A stretch of DNA of 64,000 nt from the NCBI RefSeq assembly GCF_947623445.1, contig NC_135241.1:22136501-22200500 (forward strand), in the 5' to 3' direction. The position numbers and the translations under genes were made by a program. Below are positions 18,540 to 54,913 of the stretch, piece by piece. Positions within the stretch are counted from its first letter, which is position 1; every line of letters begins with the position of its first letter. Source of the stretch: Clavelina lepadiformis. Lineage: Eukaryota; Chordata; Ascidiacea; Aplousobranchia; Clavelinidae. The notes under the pieces are model-generated. The model searched no databases and had not been told where the DNA came from. It saw only the letters and a program-made list of their open reading frames with translations.

Positions 18540-19459
18540 ATGACTGATTCCGAGCTTTCATTGTCAGAAGAAGAGTACAAAGCTATTGCGCTGTTTATAA
18601 TTGTAGTCCTGGTGCTGGTCGTATTGTTTTTTATTGTCAAATCAGTCAGAAAAAACTCTAATGGTGAGCAAGAGTTTCATTTTTTATGATTAACCCTCAA
18701 TTTTTGAAATGAAACTGTTTTTAAGAGAAACTTTTGAGGCCTTTTTCCGGAAAGATAGAAAACTTTAGTATCGGGCTAACACAAAGCTAAGAAAATTTTG
18801 TCGTTTGTTTGAAGCACAATCGATTTTATGACGTGTTCATTTCAAATGCGACATGCATGAAATTGTTTCAAATATGTTTAAAATTTGCGGTAAACTGATC
18901 ATTTGTTGGTTTGTTTAACAAAAAACGGTTTGGCCTTCGCTCAGTGAACGCTGATTTAAATCATTTCATGATTTTTATAACGTATGAAACCTCGTTAGAA
19001 ACTTATAGACCAACTGTAAAATCTTGACCCGAACTTTGGAAACCAAAGTCCAAGTTGCTACTTACCGGAACCTCCAGTATGAAGTTTCTTATTGAAAAAT
19101 TAGGGTAACCTATTCTTGTTACAGATGTGAGGTTTTGTTGATTTTTTAAAATGGCCAGTGTTTTATAGAAGTCGCTTCTAGTACGCGGTCATTGACAGTG
19201 GAATACAGGGATGGACCTGCTAAGCTTGAGGCTTCTGGTGGGGAAGAATCACCGGTTGTAAGACAGAGACGAGGTAGACCTGACAAAGGTGTGCTTCGTT
19301 TAGACGTTTCATATTCCTTATAGCCTATAGCCCACTTGGGCATTTAATTTATTGTTTTCAGCATCCAATAGATCAGTAAATATTTCGGGAGACAGCGCAG
19401 GTTCAATCAGCTTAGGAGATAACAACTCAGGTGGAAACGTCACCAATAATCATAAGTAG
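18540..19459 (+). CDS. Small single-pass membrane protein with RHIM-like C-terminal motif
   Basis: Three exons: 18540-18663, 19169-19288 and 19362-19459; 342 nt, 113 residues, phases all 1. A short acidic N-terminus (MTDSELSLSEEEYKA) is followed by a strongly hydrophobic span (AIALFIIVVLVLVVLFFIV) and a basic stop-transfer KSVRKN. That predicts N-out, C-in topology without a cleaved signal. The cytosolic tail contains a basic RQRRGRPDK segment. Exon 3 encodes NRSVNISGDSAGSISLGDNN then SGGNVTNN. The I-x-L-G-D-N-N core resembles the RHIM amyloid core of RIPK3 (V-Q-V-G-D-N-N). The same motif occurs in the next gene, so the two are paralogous at least in this exon. No known family is recognised, and the amyloid or signalling role is inference. 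Confidence 0.72.
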
Positions 19460-19750
19460 GTTTCAAAAAAATTAATGCTAAATGTTTTATGCAAAACCTA
19501 CGAAAAGTACGGTCTTCTAAATCATGACCACATTTATTTTAAAATTCATTTCTAGATAACACAAAGAGGCTTGATGAAGAACACCTGTGTGCTCCGTATA
19601 TTTGTCTGTTTTTGTTTTATCACCCCATTATCTCTGTGATGGCTGACAGATATGAAATAACATTAGTAGGGTTTGGTGACACTTAATCACTAATTACACG
19701 AACTTAATAACTAACTTGTGACGATATTATATTATAGTATACCGTTTGAA

Positions 19751-20338
19751 TGCGGCATAGAATACTTGTTTACGGAAATCGGCTTTATGAAACGATTGTC
19801 GCCGGTGAATTTGTTCAGGGTCAATTGACGTGATCCCATAAATATCATACCGACGACTTTCTGTTTACCGCTTTGAGTCGTGATATAAATTTCGTGGTTG
19901 TCTATTTTGTGTTCCTTTTTATCAGTTGTTCATTCATTCGTGTACTGAGATTGAGCTGCAACATATTTGCAGCAGCAGCTCTTATGCTGTTGCGGGTGTG
20001 CCAATTTTTTGTCTAAATGTAATCGTTCAAAGAAGCTTTGAATATAACCAGTTTATACAGTTGTCATTCCCGTGTAACCATTGTTGAATTCAATTTTAAG
20101 AAGTTCAGTGTCAAGTTAGACAACTTTGTTTTCATCTTCGCAAGACAATAAACCGTTATAAACGATAAAAGACAATAAACGTGAACAATTAAGTCTGCGG
20201 GTGAGAAAAGCAGACAACGACCGTATGAGATTCATATACCATCACCCGCAATAAACAATTCGACAAGCAAACATTGTAGTGGAGTGAGTCAACCTGTCAA
20301 GTTCATCTACCATACCATACACCACTCATTCCATTACA
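19751..20338. mobile_element. Solo LTR-like fossil related to the Gypsy fragment at 43 kb
   Basis: Begins TGCGGCATAGAATACTTG and ends TTCCATTACA (TG...CA borders). It aligns over most of its length with 43098-43515, which lies beside the Ty3/Gypsy pol fragment. Shared blocks include GTTTACGGAAATCGGC, ATATAACCAGTTTATACAG and CAAACATTGTA. This is best read as an isolated old LTR of the same family. Divergence is substantial and no target duplication is clear, so the insertion is old. Confidence 0.5.
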
Positions 20339-21805
20339 AACTTAATAACTAATAATAACTTAATAACTAATCACACTAACACTTAATCACTAATCAATTA
20401 TGTGTCGCGTGATTTAATGTCCAAGTGATTATGTGTCGGTACACCCAATGATATACTGCATTGTTAAAAAAGAGCCGTGTGGTGGTTAGGCTCAATGTAG
20501 AAAAAATTAACACTGCAATTTTAAAATTAGGTTTACAAAACTACCGTGTATATCAAACAATAAAAATATTCTACTTCTACTGTTGCAGAGCTTATCTTAT
20601 CTTAAGCTATGTTAACTTAATTTACCTGTTGAATTATCTAATTCTATTGTTGCGTGCGGTTAGAATACTCTAACCTCTTGTCAGCCGAAAGGTTTTAATA
20701 TTATAACAGCAATAGTTTACAAGAAACGGTTTTTATTGTAGGTGCTGTACACTTTCTCAATATTACGCATAATTAAGAACATAGTAATACCACTGCTTAT
20801 AAGATGTCTATTGAGTTGTAATCACCATGACTAACGTAGACTAACGTTTCAGTAATTTTCTCTATCTGCCTCTGATTGCTCGCTGGTAGAAGTGCGAGCT
20901 TATAAGACGTGAAGCGATGGGAGTGAAAATGTACGACGAGAAAAACGCAGCATTTCATAACATGTGCAGCGAGCAAAACAATGCGTTGGCAATGGGAGTT
21001 ACATGTAGTTGAAGCTGACGCGTAGATAAATATAATCAGTATAAAGTTCAGAAGCGGGCATTTGCAATAAAGGTTTCTAATCAGCACAGATGCTGGAAAC
21101 AACCTGGGAACGTACTAAAAGGAGTTTTCACATGAAGTTATTTAGAGTAGGTTTCCAAATATCAAACGACAGTTGAAGTGTTATCTAAAAACAAGTTTAT
21201 AAACTTTAATCAATAACTGGAAACACTTTTCCAAGAAATGATGTAATGGTATTAAAAATGCCACCCAGCCCGCTACACTGTAATAGCTCAATACTAACAA
21301 AGTGTTTCATATCATACCTTCTATTGATAATAAACCGAAAAACTTTTTAGCGCTTTTGAACACAATATTTTTGTTACCGACTGGAGGTATAAAATCGCTT
21401 GTTCTAATAAATGTTTCCAACAGGGTTCAGTGTTGTTGTGTTTGGTGGGCACAAATTCCGCCATTTTGCTTTTGACAACCGTTGCTTTTTACGTCACATT
21501 AAAAAAAGTTTGTGTGCGTTGTCTGCGTGATAACTTTCCCACAAATAGGCTTTAGACTTAAACCTAGCTTTAATATATTCTACATATTGTATTCAGTATA
21601 TCCTCGAATGTTCTTGAAAAGACAATTGTGAATGGAAACCAGTCTCTCATTTTTATCATAATGCAAAGAACAGAATAAGTATGCTTTAATATACAAAAGT
21701 CTCAGAACATCTTTTGTCATTTTATTGTTATTTACTTAAAAATTTATTTACATCAAAGTATCTTTTCCATTTTTATACGTCTTATTTTTTTTCTTAATTT
21801 TTAAA

Positions 21806-21985
21806 TCAGTTGCGCAATCGTTTAAAATTTAAATGATTGCGCAAACTTTAACGTGGTTGCGAAATTTCTAAATCTATTGCGCAAACTTTAGATTGGTTGC
21901 CCAACCTTTAAATAGTGAAGTCTTACACCTATTACGCCACTTATGAATTGGTTGCGAAATTGTTCTGCGCAAAGTTTTCTTCATC
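21806..21985. repeat. Degenerate tandem repeat around ATTGCGCAAACTTTAAAT
   Basis: Four to five imperfect units share GATTGCGCAAACTTTAA / GGTTGCGAAATTTTTAAAT-like words. Unit spacing is roughly 35-40 bp, with strong divergence between copies. No coding capacity. Confidence 0.5.
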
Positions 21986-22483
21986 CACAAGATGTTTACA
22001 GAAAATAAGTAAAATGAGATAGTTTTCGCTAAAATAGTGACAGAAATACTAAAAGCTAAAAAGTGCCAAAAGTTTTGTGCGATTAATATTTTATGGGTTG
22101 TATGGTTGCAATTTTAGTCAAAAACTAGTTGAAAAACTTCTAAAGACATTATTTCTTTGGGCGGAAGAATACTCAACTTCTTCCGGCCGCCTCCATCTTG
22201 TTTTTGTCACATTCATAGACATCGAAAATATAAACACTAGATGCCTAACTAGATTACGTTGCTAAGGAAAAAAGTGGAGCAAGCATGGGATTAAGAAAAA
22301 AGCCCAAAAAACGCGAAAATACTGTTCATGAATTAAATGGTTTAAACTTTAAATGGTTATTATTTCTGCATTTTCCGACTCTGCTAAGTCTGAATATATT
22401 TATGTTTCAGTTCTTAAGATATTTGAAATTTCCTGGTGGTTTCAATAAAATATCGCAGCAGGACTTTAAAAGTATTTTAATAA

Positions 22484-25400
22484 ATGGAGTTAGTTGTCGC
22501 AGCAATTGGTTTCACAGTTGGCTGGGGTCTGAGGAAAGTTTTTGGTGAGTAAACTGATACATTTTGTTTTGGTTTTATATACGTACTACACAATGTGTAG
22601 TACACATCACCAGCATAAAATATAGATTTCAGATAATTATCAATATAGATGTGAATCATATTGTAAACCGAGTAAGAAATTTCGAAAACAATATAGGTTA
22701 CAATACTTAAAAGTATAGCATAATTAATATCAAAAGAAACTTATTATAAGCTAAATATATTATATTCACCGGCACTATTTTGTAATGGATCTTATCTTTA
22801 ACATTTTGCTCAATTACTATAATTTTAAGGCTCTTGTCAAGGAATCAGTCAATAAAGAAATACCGATATCTAATACCTAATAGTAATGTCTAATACCAGA
22901 AATATCTTTTTTTATGTCTTGTGTCGATTCTAAGATGCAGCAGAAAAACGAATGCCATCAAACGAAGGGAGTAGTTACAGAAACTACAATTACGGTAAGT
23001 CCTGATATGACATGTAAGTAAGTCCTGATAATGTAAGTCCTGATATGTCCTGACATTACATTATAGTAATGTCTAATACCTTAAAGAAATACATTTTTCT
23101 ATGTCTTGTGTCGATTCAAAGATGCAGCAGAAAAACGAATGCCATCAAACGAAGGAAGTAGTTACAGAAACTACAATTACGGTAAGTCCTGATAATATAA
23201 TAACTTTATAAAAACTTTCGTTATTTCGTAATAGTAAAAACAAGTTCAGAATTTATAAAATATGAAAAATTTCGTATTTTGTTCAATACGTCGCACTTCT
23301 TATTCATAAAAACATGGCATTTCTCAATATTCTTCAAAGATATTAAAACCGTGTTTGTTAGGATCGCAAACTTCAAGGGAGATAGCTCTAGACGGAGATA
23401 ACAATGGAGCCATTGTTCTGGGTGACGACAATCAAGGAGCCAACGTATCGATCTCAGGAGGTAAACAAAAATTTTTAAATCAATTGTTCTGTATAAAGTT
23501 GAGCTGTTTAGGCTGGCTCCAATATACGTAAGCTATGAGAGATGATTTGAAAGTATATGCCTATACAACCAGCACGTTTTGAAATACTTAGCAACATGAA
23601 AGTTAAATAGTCTAATAAGCTAAGTTGCAAATTTGCCGTTATTGGGTAACGCTATTAGGAAAAGTTATGTAAGTGACAACTCATTTCAAATTTGATAGTA
23701 ACACTCCGCTATTGGGCAAAGAAACAAAAATAATAAATTCACACATTTATGAATCTGTTAATGCTTCGCTGCAGAAAACAAATCCAAGCAGCCAAAGAAC
23801 GGATCAAATGAAACCAAAGTCAATGGCAAAGATAAGGCAGTAAGCAAAAACACAACCAATGGTGAAAGCGGAAATAAAACAAACGTAAAAAACTTTACCA
23901 ACGTCAACCTCGGTGAGTTTTAAGATTTTTTACCTCGTCAAGTGCCTGTTATTTCACATTTCTAATTTATGAATGGAAACACCGATGACTGTAATGACTG
24001 TAGTGATTGTTTAAAATTAGTTAAAAGTAAAATGTGAACTATTTCTCTGAATTACTAAATTGAAATTTTAATTGAAGGTGAACAGCACAGCAGATCGGTC
24101 AACGTTGCCGGTGAGAACACAGGCGCAATCAGTCTCGGTGACAACAACACAGGAGCAAATGTTAATAGTAAGAAAAAAGTTTACGTCATACTCTGGCCAC
24201 GTGCTCAAAAACGCATTAGAGTAGTCTTAAAGTAAAAAAAATATTTTTATGATTTGTTTGATTTTTTTTTGCAGACGGTTCAAATGGTCAATGTGCTTCG
24301 AAAGAAAACAATATCATAACAGAAAATCGCGAGCAAGACATTAATATTGAAAATCTAACACTCATAAACAACCCTTCTAGTAATTATTTTGAATAATAAT
24401 AATCTATTTTATAAGAATTAGGAAACTTAAAACGTATGACACTTTCTGTGAGCGAGCCATGCAAAGTCTATTAAAATTGCGTAATTCCACGTGTAGCGCT
24501 TAGCACCTCTATGAAGGATAACATTGATATATCTAGATTGAGATTTTACGAAATGTTAATTGTTGAATTGGTAAAGCCACAAAAAATAACAATTACAGAA
24601 ATGAATTACTGTTGACACAAAGTTAAAACCGTCAGCATGACTATTAGCGTAACGTAATATATTGATAATTCCTTAACACTTTGTTATGTCAATTATAAGC
24701 GTAATATTTCATATCAAATATTTTAGCGTCGTCTTCTGGCTCAAAAACCGATCAAAAACCAACAGCTGATGAAATAACAACAACTCAACCTAAAGAAAGT
24801 CATTGGGTAACAAATCTAATAAGCAAAGATGGCAAAGAAACAAGTAAAGATGGAGAACTTTTTCAAATAAAGAATGAATTTGCAACACCGCAAATGAAAT
24901 CCGCCAATCATCAAAGTGACATCTTGGCAGAGAAAACCAAAACGCGACATCTTGAGGTTCAACTTGAAAGAGAAAGAGATTCAAGTAATGATTAAGAATT
25001 AATAAGTTTTTAAAAATTTATAACTAGCTTCTTTTCAAAATGGTATACATATGACACAACTGTTTAAAATGTGTAAACAATATATTTCCTGTTTGTCCAT
25101 GTTGTTGTTCAGACAAGCAGTACTAAATGAAATCTATAGAAAAATATGGAAATACAGTATATCTGTAGAAATGTATACAAAAGTGCATTTGGTGATGAAC
25201 GTTTGGACCTTTTAAAATGATTTTTTAATGATACAGAAAATTTTCCATGTAAACATTGTGGACAAACAGTAGCCACAACTGAAGACATTATATGCCTGCC
25301 CAGCAGAAAAGCTTTAAAAAGTTCCAACAAAAGAGAGCATCTGTCCAACAAAAAGCAACGGCTTTATGCACAGAGTTTTATAATCAACAACAATTCAGTC

Positions 25401-25725
25401 GATGTAATCACTTTTTCGAATGCAACAAACATCACAGTTTCTGATGAGGTATATTTTTATACTAAACACGCATGTGTTTTTGCATCATATATGTATCACG
25501 TATCACATGCGTTCATACTACAAAAGGTTTGTTCGTTTTTTGTAGGTAAAACTTCAATCAAACAACTGGTTCCCTGGATACAATTATAAAATTTGCTATT
25601 GTTCCAAATGCGACAAAATGATTGGATGGAAAAATATTCTGGCTGATGCGAAAGTGGCTCAGCAGGAGTTTGACACATTTTTTGATTTTAAACTTGCTGA
25701 ACAATCCTTAATCGCAGATGTGTAA
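22484..25725 (+). CDS. Membrane-anchored protein with RHIM-like repeats and C-terminal CULT domain
   Basis: Ten exons: 22484-22544, 22935-22994, 23122-23181, 23362-23460, 23775-23912, 24078-24167, 24275-24379, 24727-24984, 25237-25448 and 25546-25725. Total 1263 nt, 420 residues. The first eight splice junctions are phase 1 and the last is phase 0. The N-terminus (MELVVAAIGFTVGWGLRKVF) is a short anchor or signal. Exons 2 and 3 are near-identical duplicates (AEKRMPSNEGSSYRNYNY). RHIM-like motifs follow: GAIVLGDDNQGANV (exon 4) and GAISLGDNNTGANV (exon 6), separated by a Lys/Asn-rich linker. Residues about 291-395 form a CULT domain: CKHC and CSKC zinc ligands and the WFPGYNYK...MIGW cage. W369, Y375 and W389 have exactly the spacing of human cereblon W380/W386/W400. 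Weak GTAATT/GTAATG donors after exons 7 and 8 would give stop-terminated forms without CULT if retained. Function unknown; ligand binding at the cage and amyloid-type assembly are inferences. Confidence 0.78.
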
Positions 25726-38729: not shown

Positions 38730-41679
38730 TCAGTTATGACGTTTGTAGACGCGCACCGTGAAGTGCGGCGGCCGAAGCAGAATTCCGCTGCCACCGCGAA
38801 GCTCTTTATCGTGACCACAAAAATCCAGGCAGAGCCGGAAGCGCGAAAAGATACAAGCAAGAGCAAGAAGGAATTCCATTCTGGCAAGATGAGACCCAAT
38901 ACACGCTCTCCTTCCTATTGAAAAGGGAATTACCCGTTCGGAAGAAACAAAACACCCGTTTTCGTCCAAATGACGACCAGGACGGAAGATACCCGGGTCA
39001 GGGGACCAGTAATCGGGGTCATGGTGCACCGCCCAAATATTGGGAATGCAAGCGACCCCCTTCGGGATGTGATAACCCATTATCTTCACTGCGTTGGTTG
39101 TACAGCGGGGCACGCCAGATGGCGCAGCCGGACGAAACCTCAGCACTTCTTGCATCACGGCGTGAGAAAAGGGCGCCACCTTGTGGTCCTGCAAATCAGT
39201 GCAGGCGCTGAGGGCGAGTTGTTAAATAAAGGAGCAAAGGGTCACACAACAGGGTTTAATCAAATAAACAACAGAGCCAATAAGGCGCACGTTAGCGACC
39301 GTTTTGTAACAGATGTTGCAATGAACTACATTTATGTTTGTAACGAGTAAAATATAAATTGAAACGCCCACTATAGTATGATTATCCGTGTCTTAGCTCT
39401 ATCGGTTATTCTTTGAAAATTAATGAACATTCGGGTGTTTTAATTTTTACGCCAATAAGACGCAGTTTCGTATATTGGGTCATGCAATTTTGCTACAGTG
39501 TCCTACCGTGATCATTTCTAGCTGAACAGTGGAAATCTCGTTCAAGAACCTCTGAAGAACATTTGGATGCTTCAGAAGAAGCAAAATTCCCCATAAGATT
39601 GTGTGAGCTGTGGTGTCTGTACCGGCAGATATGACGTCTGCTGCGGTTTGTATTAACTGGTCCTCAGTAAATCTGAGACATAACAAATTAAAAACAATAA
39701 ACGGTTGTTTTGACTTTTTCCTTTTTCTTGAAATTGAGAATCATTGATTTTTGGTTGGGGCCAAAAATAAACTAATAAAGTTTTACCGACCACATTAAAA
39801 GCGTAACTGCTGCATAAAGGCACACATAAGCCTAGTCAACAAAATGCTTACACTTGTCCAATCGTTTGGTAGCAACAAGTAAAAACATTCCCTAAAGTGG
39901 GTAGAAATGGTTTTAATTTTCAGTCACGATGAAATCCAGTATGCACATAACTTATACACAACAGCCTAGCGCACGAAAACTTTGGTGAAACTTAAAAACC
40001 TTAATTTTTCGATTCACCCGTTATTATCTTTTTCTTTTTGACTCGTTTCCTTGTTTATGACGTCAATAAAACTGTCCACAAAATCGCGCGGTTCGTCGTG
40101 CATCGCACGCGAAGTTTGATGCTCGTGAACAATCTCTCGAATCTGGAAGGCTCGTTGTTGGAACCTTTTCACACTTTTCTCGATTTTCCCTTTAAGAAAT
40201 GGTAGACGTAGTACTTCGTCGAAAAACAGCATTGCAAACAAAATTTTTTCTTGCCTGATCACGAAAAGGAAAGTGTTAACTGTATAGGCCTACTAACCTA
40301 TTTCAATAGCCCAGCGTAGATAACTAATATATCGTAAATTCTAAGTTTAAACCTCTACCACTACATTGGTAGATCGCTGTTAGCGAATAGTGAGGACATG
40401 AGACGTGCCCTATCTACACTATGTGTCGCCGACCCTGCACACAGTTACGGCAAAACGTGGCGTACAGTTGCACTGTTTGTTGTAGAAACTTGAAATTTGG
40501 TGACTATTCCCAAAAATGTTCAGCTATCTGTCCATGTTTGTTTTATAAAGTTTGATTCTTGTAATTTTTGAGGTATTGTCATATTTTTGCTCTCTGCTTC
40601 CACCGTGAGCGCATTGAAGCGTATCGTTTTCGTTTAATCGTTCACGCACAATTAACTCGATTAACTGTTTTCTTGTTTTCTCTTCTCGCGGTCAGCTGGT
40701 TTTCCAGCAATTAAGCACAGCGGGAGCGCGGCGAACAAAGAAAAACTTCTAGAAATATATCACTTGTAAGTTACAAATACTTACTATAATTTACAAAAAA
40801 TGCACTTTTTTTAGTTTTACAACCATGCTGTATACAGGGAGCCAAATGTTTTTGCTACTAACCTGTAAAAATCCGATCAGTTTGCGACGTATAGTTTTCG
40901 AGTAATTAACGATTGAAAACTTGTGTGCGGTATCGGCCACACATAGTTAAACTAGTAAAGTCGCTCACCCGGTGTAGGTAGGGTTAAGTGTTACCCTATT
41001 AGCTACCAGTGGACACTGGAAAAAACAGCTAATACGTTCGCGCTTACCTGAGCGTACGATTGCGAATGTCGGAGACGATTTGCTGCAAAATCGGGTTGTC
41101 GTCTTCAAACCTTTTCCCAAACAGTAATCTGCTGACGACGTTGCACGACATAACTCCCACTAGTAAATTTAAATCTATCCCGCCAAAATTCTTTCTCGCG
41201 GCTGTTGCCTCTATGGCGTCACATAGAAATCCAGCCTCATCGATAATATGATGTTTCATGTTCTGTTTTCCCATGCCGAAATCTTTCAGTGTGCGAAGAG
41301 CAAACCGGCGTTGACATCTCAGCTTGCGACCGTCGTTAGCGGACAATAAACCGTTATCTCCATCTTTAAGTTTTTCAGTAAGTTTGCTTTTCACACGACC
41401 GGAAAAGTCATGAGAGTGGCCATTAAACGCTTCATGGATAACTTTGAAACTATTTAAGACCAAAACTCGTTTCATACCTATTCGAACATAAAAAACGTCG
41501 CCAAATTTCTTGCCCCACTCTGTGAACGTCCTTTCCCGGTGATCACCCCAAAAGGGTATGCAGCCGAGAAGCGGCAGGCCATCCAGGCCGGGTGGAAAGC
41601 ATTTTGGCTTGAAGTAGAACCACTTCCACATTCCATAAACTACAAGACCCAGACCAACAAGAGCCACATAAGTAAGCAT
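38730..41679 (-). CDS. Cytochrome P450, CYP2-like (microsomal)
   Basis: ER-anchored haem monooxygenase of the CYP2 clan. Four exons: 41048-41679, 40018-40254, 39507-39672 and 38730-39188; 1494 nt, 497 residues, phases all agreeing and length typical of the family. The N-terminal anchor MLTYVALVGLGLVVYGMWKW is followed by the Pro hinge FPPGLDGLPLLG. The I-helix reads AGTDTTAHT. The K-helix ExxR is at EVLR (E359), with the FRPGRHLDENG region after it and the haem loop PFSIGRRACIG with Cys441. In the C-helix, GRKLRCQRRFALRTL has Leu where CYP2 enzymes usually have the Trp of WxxxR. I chose ATG 41679 because it starts directly at the anchor in an ACCATG context; an in-frame ATG at 41727 is also possible. 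The substrate cannot be told from sequence. Confidence 0.95.
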
Positions 41680-43097
41680 GGTTTCCAAAGACCAGCTACA
41701 AACAATAAAGCAAAACCTGGAGTGCATAAAAACTTAGTAAACCAAAGAAACAATAAGAGCAGAACTGCACCAGCAAGTCTGCAACTACCCTGCCTACGAG
41801 CCACAGCAAACTTCTAAGTACAGTACACTCAAACAATGAGACAAACGAAGCAGTCTCGTGACTGGTAAGCGGTCGTTATTGCTTACGGCATAGAAACGTG
41901 TTCACGTGCTCGCCAAAGCAGGTCAACAGGTCGACACCGTTAAAACCTCAGATAAACAGCATTGAAGGCATATCTTTGATTAGACGAGGATTTCGAAAGG
42001 AGGCCTAGTTGTAGCATTAGCCAGTGAATACGATAAGCGACCTGTCGAATTCAAGACTTCAATAAAAATAAATGTCTTCCGGCTTTGTCCCCTCAAAAGC
42101 AACACGAGCAATACCCGATCAAACGAGAGATTTATATGTCAAAGGGTAGGCGTGAAAATAGCAACATGCTATATCGGTTTTGAAGTGTTTTTATACAAAG
42201 GCTAATCATTACAAACACTATATAACGTCCCACCGATCGCAGAATATACTTGATGCAACACGGAATGAGCCTGATGATCAACTTCCTTCATAACAGAGGC
42301 AAATGATGTAGGAATATGAAGTTACCTCACGTCACTTTGGGTGATGTTTTCTGTTTGTTGCTCGTGTTTGGTTTTGCGTTGAGTAACAGTTTCTGTGATC
42401 CTTAGGTCATTAATTGCTCGTGAAAAACCCACCAGCGGTTTAATAATGTCTAGTTTTCAACGTTAAAGTTCTCTTTTTTAGAGCTGTAAACGGCAACGCG
42501 AGCTCATAATAACAACAACTAATGATGAAAAACATTTTAGTAGATTTAACTGGTTTGCAGTCAATGTCTCCAGAATCGGACCGTAAACGATTCAACGAAA
42601 AACTCAGAAAGGATATAGTATTAGCACAAAACCCTCGTCATACATCTGATACGTTCTATTGTTCTCACTCTTAGATTTACAGGCACATCTTTTATTTAAA
42701 AACAGTTTGGTTAAGTTTCGTTGACACAGCTCATCTCGGGAGCTCCAATGTAAAACTGACCGTGTAACTACCCAGTACCCACACAGGTCGAAAATGACAG
42801 ACGTGCTTAATCAATCAGGAAAAGGCGTAATCGGCCGCAAGGGAAAACTCACAGAGCACAAACAAGTGTAACACTCTCCCCCCTCCCACAAAAACTGTAG
42901 ACACTCAATAAATGTTACCCAGAAAAATAACGAATGTCCTGTAAAAAAAAAACGAATTGTAAACACTACTTACATGTGAAGTGAATCCTCATTTGCTGAA
43001 AGCAATTTTATAAGGTGCACTATGAACTATGAAGAGCTGGAGAAACATTGCTTGATATGAAGTTGTGATGATTTTATAAAATTGCTTGCAAATCGAA
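41680..43097. other. P450 upstream intergenic region
   Basis: Presumably contains the P450 promoter. No exon, tRNA or repeat is recognised. Confidence 0.45.
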
Positions 43098-51941: not shown

Positions 51942-52929
51942 TTAGTACTTCCCCATGCCCACTGAGGAATCTTTCGACCTTTGGATATATGAATAAAATG
52001 CTTTTCTATCTACTATGTTGACATCATTTATAACAAATCCTGATTGTTTTCCACGGATTTTTATGGTGTTATTCACGAGAGAAACATTTCTCAGCGGAAT
52101 ATTTTTCATGTTGTTTTGTCCGAATAGTCTGTACAATGACAAAGAGAAGGTTTGTCTGTCCGTTGAAACGACAATATCTTTGATAATCTTGTTGATATTG
52201 TGGGATATGGCAAAATATACTGCAACGATCACACCAAGTAAAAACCCAGCAATTAGTTTTTGAGTCATTGGTCCAACTTCTGGAATTGCTTTGTTTCTGT
52301 CATCTGTAAAAATCAGGTGCAACTGAATGCCAGCGACAACTATACCACGCACTTTGTGAAAAGTCAGCCAATTTTCTATATCAGTCAGCAATAGATTCTA
52401 TTTAAGTTGAATACACAGTTTTTCTTGTAACTAACCTGATGAAACGGTAACCTTATCACCCTTTAATGGTCCAACTTTGATCCTGAAGTCCGTCCATAAA
52501 ACAAACGCTCCGGTACCAAATGAAAAGACCTGTTAAAGTTCAAATGAAAATTTGCTCTAGGTGAAATCTGTGCATGGAAACAGCTCAATATATTTAGTAT
52601 TAGCAGAATATACGTAAAACTGTTTATGAACATAGAAGCACTCAAAAGGTATTAAAGCTAATGCCGTGCCTACACTATACCATAATCATAGAACTTACTG
52701 TTGCGATGAATGCCATTTGACCCCATTTTCTCAATTCGTTGACCTGAGAACCCTTGTTTTGATAAATTAGTTTTGGGGATGAAAAACCTTTTGAAGGGTT
52801 ATTTATGAAGTTTCTTGAAAAACAAAGTCTTCCTAATCTGCTAAGTATATTGTGACGATAAGATGTGCTATTTTTTGGAATTAAATTTCCAAGGCACACT
52901 GGAACTGACCTACAAAATATACTAAGCAT
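51942..52929 (-). CDS. TMEM223-like mitochondrial membrane protein, copy 1
   Basis: Three exons: 52699-52929, 52436-52529 and 51942-52303; 687 nt, 228 residues. The Arg/Ser-rich N-terminus (MLSIFCRSVPVCLGN..., RLGRLCFSRN) looks like a mitochondrial presequence. Two hydrophobic segments follow, WGQMAFIATVFSFGTGAFVLW and KLIAGFLLGVIVAVYFAI. The C-terminal domain IIKDIVVSTDRQTFSLSLYR, then PLRNVSLV, matches the TMEM223 region after the second span (RSVVLRAGGQQVTLTTHAPF and PLKQVSC in human). TMEM223 is an inner-membrane protein involved in complex IV assembly. The next gene (53815-54913) is a paralogue in the same orientation. Family assignment is moderately strong, based on topology and the C-terminal domain. 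Confidence 0.75.
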
Positions 52930-53814: not shown

Positions 53815-54913
53815 TCACGGTTTTCTAATTGAGACTCCTCTGCTAACTCCAAAAGCAGATTCAAACAACGACTTGTTGAAAATTGTTCCCTGGTCTGACA
53901 CATAAAATGAGGAGGTGTGGTTCTTAATTTTAATTTTATTTCTTTGCAGTGAAGCATCTTCAGTAGGGAAAGTCAATACTTTTTGCCTGCCGATGAGTCG
54001 ATAAGACACCAAGGTAATTGTTTGTCTATCAGTTGACAGCAGTATCTTCTTTACTGTAGAGTTTACAAATCTTGTCGAAACGTAATAAATAAGACCGGCT
54101 GTTGCTAAAAATATATATGGAACAGCTCGTCCAAAACTGCCACCGTAGATTTTTCGTGAACTTGAATAATCCTTTGCGACTTCTTCATCCATATTTTCAT
54201 ACAACTCTCTCAGATCAATTGCTTGCAAAGCTGAAATCCCAAGAGCAATTACCTATCAAACATCATTATATGTCAAAGTTGAAGTGGAGTTGACCGCTGA
54301 TTGCGGAAAGTATAGCACAAAAACACGCAACATTTGACAACGCTTACACTGAATTTTTTTCATGCAGATTAAGATTTTTAATAAACAGGTACGTCAAATT
54401 TGGCTGTTTGAATTTCAATTTATTATAAACATGTTTAAGACCAATGACCCTATCATATTATGCTAATGCTTTAGACTCTGCATGTGCAATTTTGCACTGA
54501 AAACTGCGATGCTTTCCAGTCTCAGTAATTGTGGCATTTAACTGCTTTTGTTGTTCTGTTAATTAGTCATGATTTAATCTAAAATTTAGCAATGCAAAAT
54601 AAAAACTGGAAAATATATCAAAACTTAGTTATATATATATCAATAAAATAAATATCAAGAATTAACTCACCCCAGTCAATGCAAAAAGTCTAGGTAAGCG
54701 CAGAGAATAATTTAAATGATTGTAAATTAAAAAAGCTTTGTCTGCTGTTTGATTGTTTTCTGCCGGGGCACTGTAATAACGGCATGATCTTTTCCACAGT
54801 TGTTTTCGTAAATGAGCGGAACGTTGATGCACTATTCGCTGAGCACAAGTACACAATGTCCCAGAAGAAAATTTCAACGAAGTGCACGGAAGTTTGCGAA
54901 ACAGAACAATCAT
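53815..54913 (-). CDS. TMEM223-like mitochondrial membrane protein, copy 2
   Basis: Two exons: 54671-54913 and 53815-54252; 681 nt, 226 residues. The N-terminus (LRKQLWKRSCRYYSAP) has a mitochondrial presequence character. The segment AFLIYNHLNYSLRLPRLFAL, then TGVIALGISAL, aligns with the first span of TMEM223. A second span is AVPYIFLATAGLIYYV. The domain VKKILLSTDRQTITLVSYRL, then FPTEDASLQ, is the same as in copy 1 (STDRQT shared exactly). Exon structure differs: copy 2 has one intron fewer. The pair probably arose by an old tandem duplication, since similarity outside the C-terminal domain is low. Copy 2 looks nearer to canonical TMEM223 in its first-span sequence; which copy is the orthologue is uncertain. 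Confidence 0.75.

What the first reader, a model, noticed from the sequence alone, without database searches (positions are those of the whole stretch)
18540..25725. Adjacent membrane-anchored proteins sharing a RHIM-like amyloid motif
Seen: the gene at 18540-19459 and the gene at 22484-25725 both start with a short hydrophobic anchor. Their tails contain GSISLGDNNSGGNV, GAIVLGDDNQGANV and GAISLGDNNTGANV. Known: RHIM cores have the form (I/V)Q(V/I/L)GxxN, and human RIPK3 reads VNIYNCSGVQVGDNNYL, strikingly like RSVNISGDSAGSISLGDNNS and RSVNVAGENTGAISLGDNNT. Inference: the pair could be a membrane-tethered prion-like signalling module in which the small protein and the CULT protein co-assemble. 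The usual Gln is replaced by Ser or Val, so this is RHIM-like, not a canonical RHIM.
Basis: partly seen in the sequence, partly recalled or inferred. Interest (0 to 1): 0.9.

Follow-up and report, generated by a model that had tools for sequence, protein, structure and literature searches.

The report
Paired sea-squirt genes sharing RHIM-like motif
Two neighbouring sea-squirt genes, one for a small membrane protein and one for a protein ending in a cereblon-type (CULT) domain, share a short strongly conserved motif that resembles the amyloid "glue" motifs of animal and fungal cell-death signalling, so they may form a new self-assembling signalling pair, though no fibril has been shown.

Summary
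Two adjacent, same-strand, intron-containing genes, otherwise unalike, share a 24-residue motif (core G-[AS]-I-[SV]-L-G-D-[ND]-N): once at the C-terminus of a 113-aa single-pass membrane protein, twice in the N-terminal half of a 420-aa protein ending in a CULT domain. In 209 Mb of the host genome (a tunicate, very probably Clavelina lepadiformis) the core pattern occurs four times, three of them here; a protein search finds only these three exons. Between copies, synonymous sites are near saturation (pS 0.74-1.0) while replacement sites are held (pN 0.17-0.34), so the motif is old and protein-constrained. Neighbouring genes sharing a short motif is the layout of amyloid signalling pairs. It is not a canonical RHIM: the tetrad's Gln is missing in 3 of 3 copies, Pfam's RHIM model does not match, and similarity to RIPK3 is weak against shuffles (23, 74 and 371 of 5000). 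Lack of Gln is not disqualifying: insect "cryptic RHIMs" lack it and still form amyloid. Best reading: a homotypic, probably amyloid, assembly motif coupling a CULT sensor to a membrane partner. The amyloid step, topology and ligand are inferred. Conservation outside this genome could not be tested.

The parts
18540..18663 (+). Gene 1 exon 1: acidic N-terminus plus strong transmembrane helix followed by K/R (read as N-out, C-in by charge, inference)
   Evidence: ORF and GT donor; hydropathy 3.9 over 15 residues
19169..19288 (+). Gene 1 exon 2: linker, probably flexible
   Evidence: AG/GT borders, phase 1; 70% disorder-promoting residues
19362..19459 (+). Gene 1 exon 3: RHIM-like motif copy A at the C-terminus and stop codon
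19370..19441 (+). Motif copy A (I-S-L-G-D-N-N core)
22484..22544 (+). Gene 2 exon 1: short, weakly hydrophobic N-terminal segment followed by R-K
22935..22994 (+). Gene 2 exon 2 (duplicated as exon 3)
   Evidence: the two exons differ at one base, a synonymous change by reading
23122..23181 (+). Gene 2 exon 3, tandem copy of exon 2
23362..23460 (+). Gene 2 exon 4: motif copy B (residues 66-89; I-V-L-G-D-D-N core)
23775..23912 (+). Gene 2 exon 5: N/S/T/K-rich linker between the two motif copies
   Evidence: 62% N+S+T+K
24078..24167 (+). Gene 2 exon 6: motif copy C (residues 145-168; I-S-L-G-D-N-N core)
24275..24379 (+). Gene 2 exon 7: linker; if the GT donor at 24380 is not used the frame runs five codons further to a stop, which would give a short product without CULT
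24727..24984 (+). Gene 2 exon 8: linker, probably flexible
   Evidence: 56% disorder-promoting residues
25237..25448 (+). Gene 2 exon 9: first half of CULT domain, first Cys pair (C-x-x-C)
   Evidence: Pfam Yippee-Mis18 E 3.6e-7 for exons 9 and 10 together; alignment to secreted-type CULT paralogue
25546..25725 (+). Gene 2 exon 10: second half of CULT domain, second C-x-x-C and ligand-cage aromatics W/Y/W
   Evidence: cereblon chains of the PDB, best E 4.6e-4

Best explanation
The two genes encode a membrane-associated pair that recognise each other through a shared homotypic, RHIM-like assembly motif. Shown by computation: the motif is found only in these two genes of the genome, is old, and is under strong protein-level constraint; gene 1 has a strong transmembrane helix; gene 2 ends in a CULT domain closest to a secreted-type CULT gene of the same genome. 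Inferred: the tails are cytosolic. Binding of a ligand (by analogy with cereblon, a C-terminal cyclic imide or similar small molecule) to the CULT domain clusters gene 2. Its two motif copies then nucleate a cross-beta stack, which templates the single motif of gene 1, so that gene 1 is drawn into clusters at the membrane and passes the signal on. This works like the insect PGRP-LC/IMD cryptic RHIM and the fungal receptor/effector pairs.
For: Motif shared by adjacent, otherwise unalike genes: gene 1 without its motif exon is no more like gene 2 than its own shuffles (323 of 500 reach the score). Motif confined to this locus. Purifying selection: pS 0.74-1.0 against pN 0.17-0.34 over 24 codons in 3 of 3 pairs. 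I-x-L-G satisfies positions 1, 3 and 4 of the RHIM tetrad, with flanking D and N. Pseudo-palindrome centred on the Gln-equivalent position, as in the PP motif, in 2 of 3 copies (133 and 20 of 5000 shuffles). No competing family: 0 Pfam matches for 3 of 3 motif peptides, no significant solved chain (best E 0.96; none), and no secondary structure in the AlphaFold2 model of copy C. Basic residues just after the gene 1 helix favour a cytosolic tail (inference). Published precedent: pairs in neighbouring genes (PMC12261475); insect cRHIMs without Gln that form amyloid (PMC9496462; PMC9531809). Ligand analogy: cyclic imides as cereblon ligands (PMC11974815, start of abstract in listing).
Against: No Gln in 3 of 3 copies; no Pfam RHIM match; weak RIPK3 similarity; palindrome not significant in copy A (1134 of 5000; another centre scores higher). 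The AlphaFold2 model of one 30-residue exon, from 3 sequences, is uninformative (pLDDT 69.5, pTM 0.16). The CULT domain is closest to a secreted-type paralogue and N-glycosylation sequons are slightly above shuffles (gene 2: 13 against 8.3, 247 of 5000 reach it; gene 1: 4 against 1.7, 343 of 5000), so the tails might be luminal. The gene 2 anchor is weak. No NLR or known effector domain in either protein. A Yippee-Mis18 search of the genome, exon by exon, did not list the gene 2 CULT exons among its 5 matches. No expression data and no relatives were available; motif in prokaryotes and viral contigs: 0 confirmed.
Confidence: 0.45

Rival explanations
1. The motif is a non-amyloid linear docking motif: both proteins bind the same third protein (or each other one-to-one) through it, without fibrils.
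For: A short, exon-encoded, conserved motif next to linkers is equally what a docking peptide looks like; no match to the RHIM model.
Against: A Gly/Asn-rich, partly pseudo-palindromic h-x-h-G core is more typical of amyloid motifs than of docking peptides, and presence in two neighbouring genes suggests self-recognition (both inference).
Confidence: 0.27
2. The proteins face outward: gene 2 is a modified member of the secreted CULT family, and the motif is an extracellular or cell-surface self-adhesive beta-rich element.
For: The gene 2 CULT domain aligns best with a paralogue whose first exon looks by eye like a signal peptide (43 of 130 identical; same intron site); 13 sequons in gene 2.
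Against: Basic residues directly after both hydrophobic segments favour C-in (inference); the sequon excess is marginal and the reversed sequon is also frequent (9 in gene 2); gene 2 shows no convincing signal peptide (by eye; no predictor was run).
Confidence: 0.13
3. The two genes are alternative products of one locus: the gene 1 first exons can splice in frame to gene 2 exons, giving a strongly anchored CULT protein, and gene 1 as modelled is a short isoform.
For: 10 of 11 introns are phase 1, so most exons of the two genes could be exchanged in frame; same strand, about 3 kb apart.
Against: Gene 1 has its own stop codon and gene 2 its own ATG. Not exclusive with the main reading.
Confidence: 0.12
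4. Exon-duplication relics or low-complexity tails without function.
For: A near-identical tandem pair of 60-base exons shows that the locus duplicates exons.
Against: Synonymous sites near saturation with amino acids held in all three motif copies.
Confidence: 0.03

Closest known systems
Insect cryptic RHIM (PGRP-LC, PGRP-LE, IMD)
   Same: Core of the RHIM tetrad kept without the conserved Gln; membrane receptor and a partner share the motif (PMC9496462; PMC9531809; passages seen)
Vertebrate RHIM (RIPK1, RIPK3, ZBP1, TRIF)
   Same: I-x-L-G-D-N-N against V-Q-V-G-D-N-N of the RIPK3 letters in the finding; partial pseudo-palindrome
   Different: No Gln, no Pfam RHIM match, no kinase, TIR or death domain; RIPK1 homologues were reported as not found in tunicates (PMC12119088, passages)
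Fungal PP / HET-s type and bacterial BASS receptor-effector pairs
   Same: Neighbouring genes share a short motif; two copies in one protein and one in the partner, as R1/R2 and R0 (PMC7885112, introduction part 1; PMC7889193, passages)
   Different: No NLR and no HeLo or Bell domain found by Pfam; the organism is an animal
Secreted animal CULT proteins and cereblon (PMC4287342, passages)
   Same: Two C-x-x-C pairs, W-F-P-G-Y and G-W; intron site shared with the secreted-type paralogue
   Different: Middle cage Trp is Tyr; the motif-bearing N-terminal part has no counterpart in the paralogue stretch read

Membership tests
RHIM | Core tetrad (V/I)-Q-(V/I/L/C)-G (definition from PMC9444067) | tested here: not met
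   I-S-L-G, I-V-L-G, I-S-L-G: positions 1, 3 and 4 fit in 3 of 3, Gln in 0 of 3
RHIM | Match to Pfam RHIM PF12721 | tested here: not met
   Not listed at E up to 10 for 2 proteins or 3 motif peptides; in the genome 2 matches, 0 over cut-off and neither in this window. HMMER filters may hide very weak matches
RHIM | Sequence similarity to a known RHIM beyond composition | tested here: inconclusive
   RIPK3 letters of the finding only: 23, 74 and 371 of 5000 shuffles reach the score
RHIM | Forms amyloid fibrils | not testable with these tools
   needs ThT, EM or NMR
Insect cryptic RHIM | RHIM-like core lacking Gln that still forms amyloid | not testable with these tools
   Core shape fits; amyloid and direct alignment not done
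Amyloid signalling pair (fungal/bacterial type) | Same short motif in products of neighbouring genes | tested here: met
Amyloid signalling pair (fungal/bacterial type) | NLR receptor and HeLo/Bell-type effector | tested here: not met
   Pfam lists neither in the two proteins; the rest of the genome was not searched for NLRs
PP motif | Pseudo-palindrome centred on a conserved Gln | tested here: inconclusive
   Palindrome in 2 of 3 copies, Gln in 0 of 3
CULT domain | Two C-x-x-C zinc pairs | tested here: met
   CKHC and CSKC; Yippee-Mis18 3.6e-7, over its cut-off
CULT domain | Three Trp ligand cage | tested here: inconclusive
   W, Y, W against W, W, W in cereblon and the secreted-type paralogue of the same genome

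The most novel reading that the evidence does not exclude
A signalling-amyloid system of a chordate outside the vertebrate RHIM family: a ligand-sensing CULT protein with two amyloid motifs templates a dedicated membrane partner, in a lineage where RIPK1 was reported as not found. It would answer 'no' to the published question whether RHIM is the only signalling amyloid of animals, and would give CULT domains a role outside ubiquitin ligases.
Probability: 0.27. Interest if true: 0.85.

Novelty: new variant of a known kind. Interest (0 to 1): 0.6.

Why it matters
[quoted passage not shown] A two-gene, motif-sharing pair in a close relative of vertebrates makes that question testable with three short peptides. 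It also joins a CULT domain, the drug-binding domain of cereblon, to a self-assembly-like motif; a search for 'CULT domain' together with 'RHIM' found 0 papers (open-licence PMC only). It hints at a function for the secreted-type CULT family.

Tried and rejected
Pfam RHIM search of the genome gave 2 sub-threshold matches: L003 lies in a dynein-like heavy-chain gene (by eye); L004 was not inspected. A first, cruder DNA pattern gave 2 matches (copy C, and L002, not inspected), with 2 for its control. The fourth genome match of the core pattern (L023, C2:25.31 Mb) looks like chance: none of the frames of 45 aa or more listed there covers it (sequence), and the control pattern also gives 1. Search of prokaryote genomes and viral contigs with the motif: 14 and 46 stretches matched a pattern, 0 confirmed. 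PDB searches with the motif: 2 chance-level hits with the profile (E 0.96 and 2), 0 with a single copy. Gene 1 gave 10 Pfam listings, all under their cut-offs (best E 0.015). COX1 search to name the phylum found nothing, so GH6 was used instead. Further degenerate motif copies in the window: the next best score was 24.3, overlapping copy B, against 87.7-95. Rfam and tRNA scans of the window: 0 and 0. No fold search was made, as the one model had no structure.

Spliced proteins were not handed to structure prediction, since that tool states that it takes only proteins given letter for letter by the DNA.
Full report
What is there. The window is animal DNA on contig C2 (26,529,800 bases) of a 209-Mb, 95-contig genome. 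Two matches to glycoside hydrolase family 6, over the family's cut-off only with their neighbours in the frame, point to a tunicate (recalled: the cellulose-synthase genes of tunicates carry such a domain). Contig lengths C4, C6 and C8 equal chromosomes 4, 6 and 8 of Clavelina lepadiformis to two decimals (25.07, 20.77, 19.51 Mb) and C2 is within about 0.01 Mb of chromosome 2 (26.54); the published assembly is 210.1 Mb in 102 scaffolds against 209.06 Mb in 95 here (PMC10884593, passages). The name is an inference.

Gene 1 has three exons (18540-19459, 113 aa): acidic N-terminus, strong membrane helix, basic flank, linker, motif, stop. Gene 2 has ten exons (22484-25725, 420 aa): weakly hydrophobic start, a 20-residue exon present twice, motif copy B, an N/S/T/K-rich linker, motif copy C, two further linker exons and a C-terminal CULT domain. 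All 11 introns are GT-AG and 10 are phase 1. The models come from frames and splice sites alone; there is no RNA evidence here, and a read-through of exon 7 would end five codons later without CULT.

The motif. Copies A, B and C align without gaps over 24 residues; 11 of the 29 columns of alignment A1 are invariant. Each pair scores above all 5000 shuffles. In the whole genome the core pattern occurs four times, three here, with one match of the reversed control; the fourth lies in no listed open frame of 45 aa or more. A protein search with copy C returned exactly the three exons, and a search with the whole gene 1 product returned its own three exons and copy C. Outside the motif the two proteins are not alike (323 of 500 shuffles reach the best score). 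Nei-Gojobori counts give pS 1.00, 0.74 and 0.77 against pN 0.34, 0.17 and 0.27 for A-B, A-C and B-C. The copies are therefore old and their amino acids are held. With 24 codons and saturated synonymous sites this is strong qualitatively, but no exact ratio should be quoted.

Is it a RHIM? By definition, no. The tetrad (V/I)-Q-(V/I/L/C)-G (PMC9444067, passages) is I-S-L-G, I-V-L-G and I-S-L-G here. Pfam RHIM does not match. Against the RIPK3 letters printed in the finding, scores are reached by 74 (A), 371 (B) and 23 (C) of 5000 shuffles: suggestive for A and C, weak for B, and RIPK3 was picked after the fact. The fungal PP motif is pseudo-palindromic around its Gln (PMC5485727, passages). The copies centred at the same position, over 8 residues each side, give 1134 (A), 133 (B) and 20 (C) of 5000; the RIPK3 letters, over 7, give 0 of 5000. 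Missing Gln is not fatal: insect cryptic RHIMs are described as missing a conserved Gln and still forming amyloid (PMC9496462), and in Aedes only PGRP-LC keeps it in the core (PMC9531809). RIPK1 homologues were reported as not found in tunicates (PMC12119088, passages).

Does it work like a signalling amyloid pair? The literature describes such motifs as working in pairs or triplets typically encoded by collocated genes (PMC12261475, passages; PMC7885112, introduction part 1), which is what is seen here. Two copies in one protein and one in the other recalls R1/R2 of HET-S and R0 of its receptor. The usual NLR and pore-forming domains are absent from both proteins. The AlphaFold2 model of exon 6, with the other two motif exons as alignment, has no secondary structure, pLDDT 69.5 and pTM 0.16. 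It shows no alternative soluble fold, but says nothing on fibrils.

Topology is the weakest link. Charge bias favours cytosolic tails in both proteins. The ancestry of the CULT domain and a marginal excess of sequons (gene 2: 13 against 8.3; gene 1: 4 against 1.7) point the other way. If the tails are luminal, an extracellular self-adhesion role replaces signalling.

Novelty. No paper in the held library has both 'CULT domain' and 'RHIM'. A search with 'RHIM' and three tunicate terms, any two required, matched 3,254 papers; of the 15 listed only one contains the string 'rhim', once, and its title is off the subject. PMC7889193 (passages) poses as open whether RHIM is the only signalling amyloid of animals. 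I rate the pair as a new variant of a known kind: RHIM-like pair logic with a CULT sensor, amyloid step unproven.

Noticed in passing
22935-22994 and 23122-23181, with some flanking intron: Tandem duplication of a 60-base exon of gene 2; the exon copies differ by one base, and intron just upstream is alike too (by eye).
   Followed up: partly
L018 (C2:16,883,159-16,886,296): A small CULT gene on the same chromosome with a signal-peptide-like first exon, the likely source family of the gene 2 CULT domain.
   Followed up: partly
38730-39194 and 41044-41727, minus strand: Cytochrome P450 exons (Pfam p450 8.4e-44 and 7.9e-26).
   Followed up: no
51942-52391 and 53815-54228, minus strand: Two neighbouring ORFs matching the TMEM70/186/223 family (the first is below the family's cut-off), possibly tandem paralogues.
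   Followed up: no
22285-22548, plus strand: An open frame of 87 codons from an ATG, in another frame over gene 2 exon 1, with a hydrophobic stretch; it does not join in frame at the gene 2 donor.
   Followed up: partly
L033 and L034 (contig C9, near 12.56 and 12.57 Mb): Two glycoside hydrolase family 6 matches about 15 kb apart, a tunicate hallmark (recalled).
   Followed up: no
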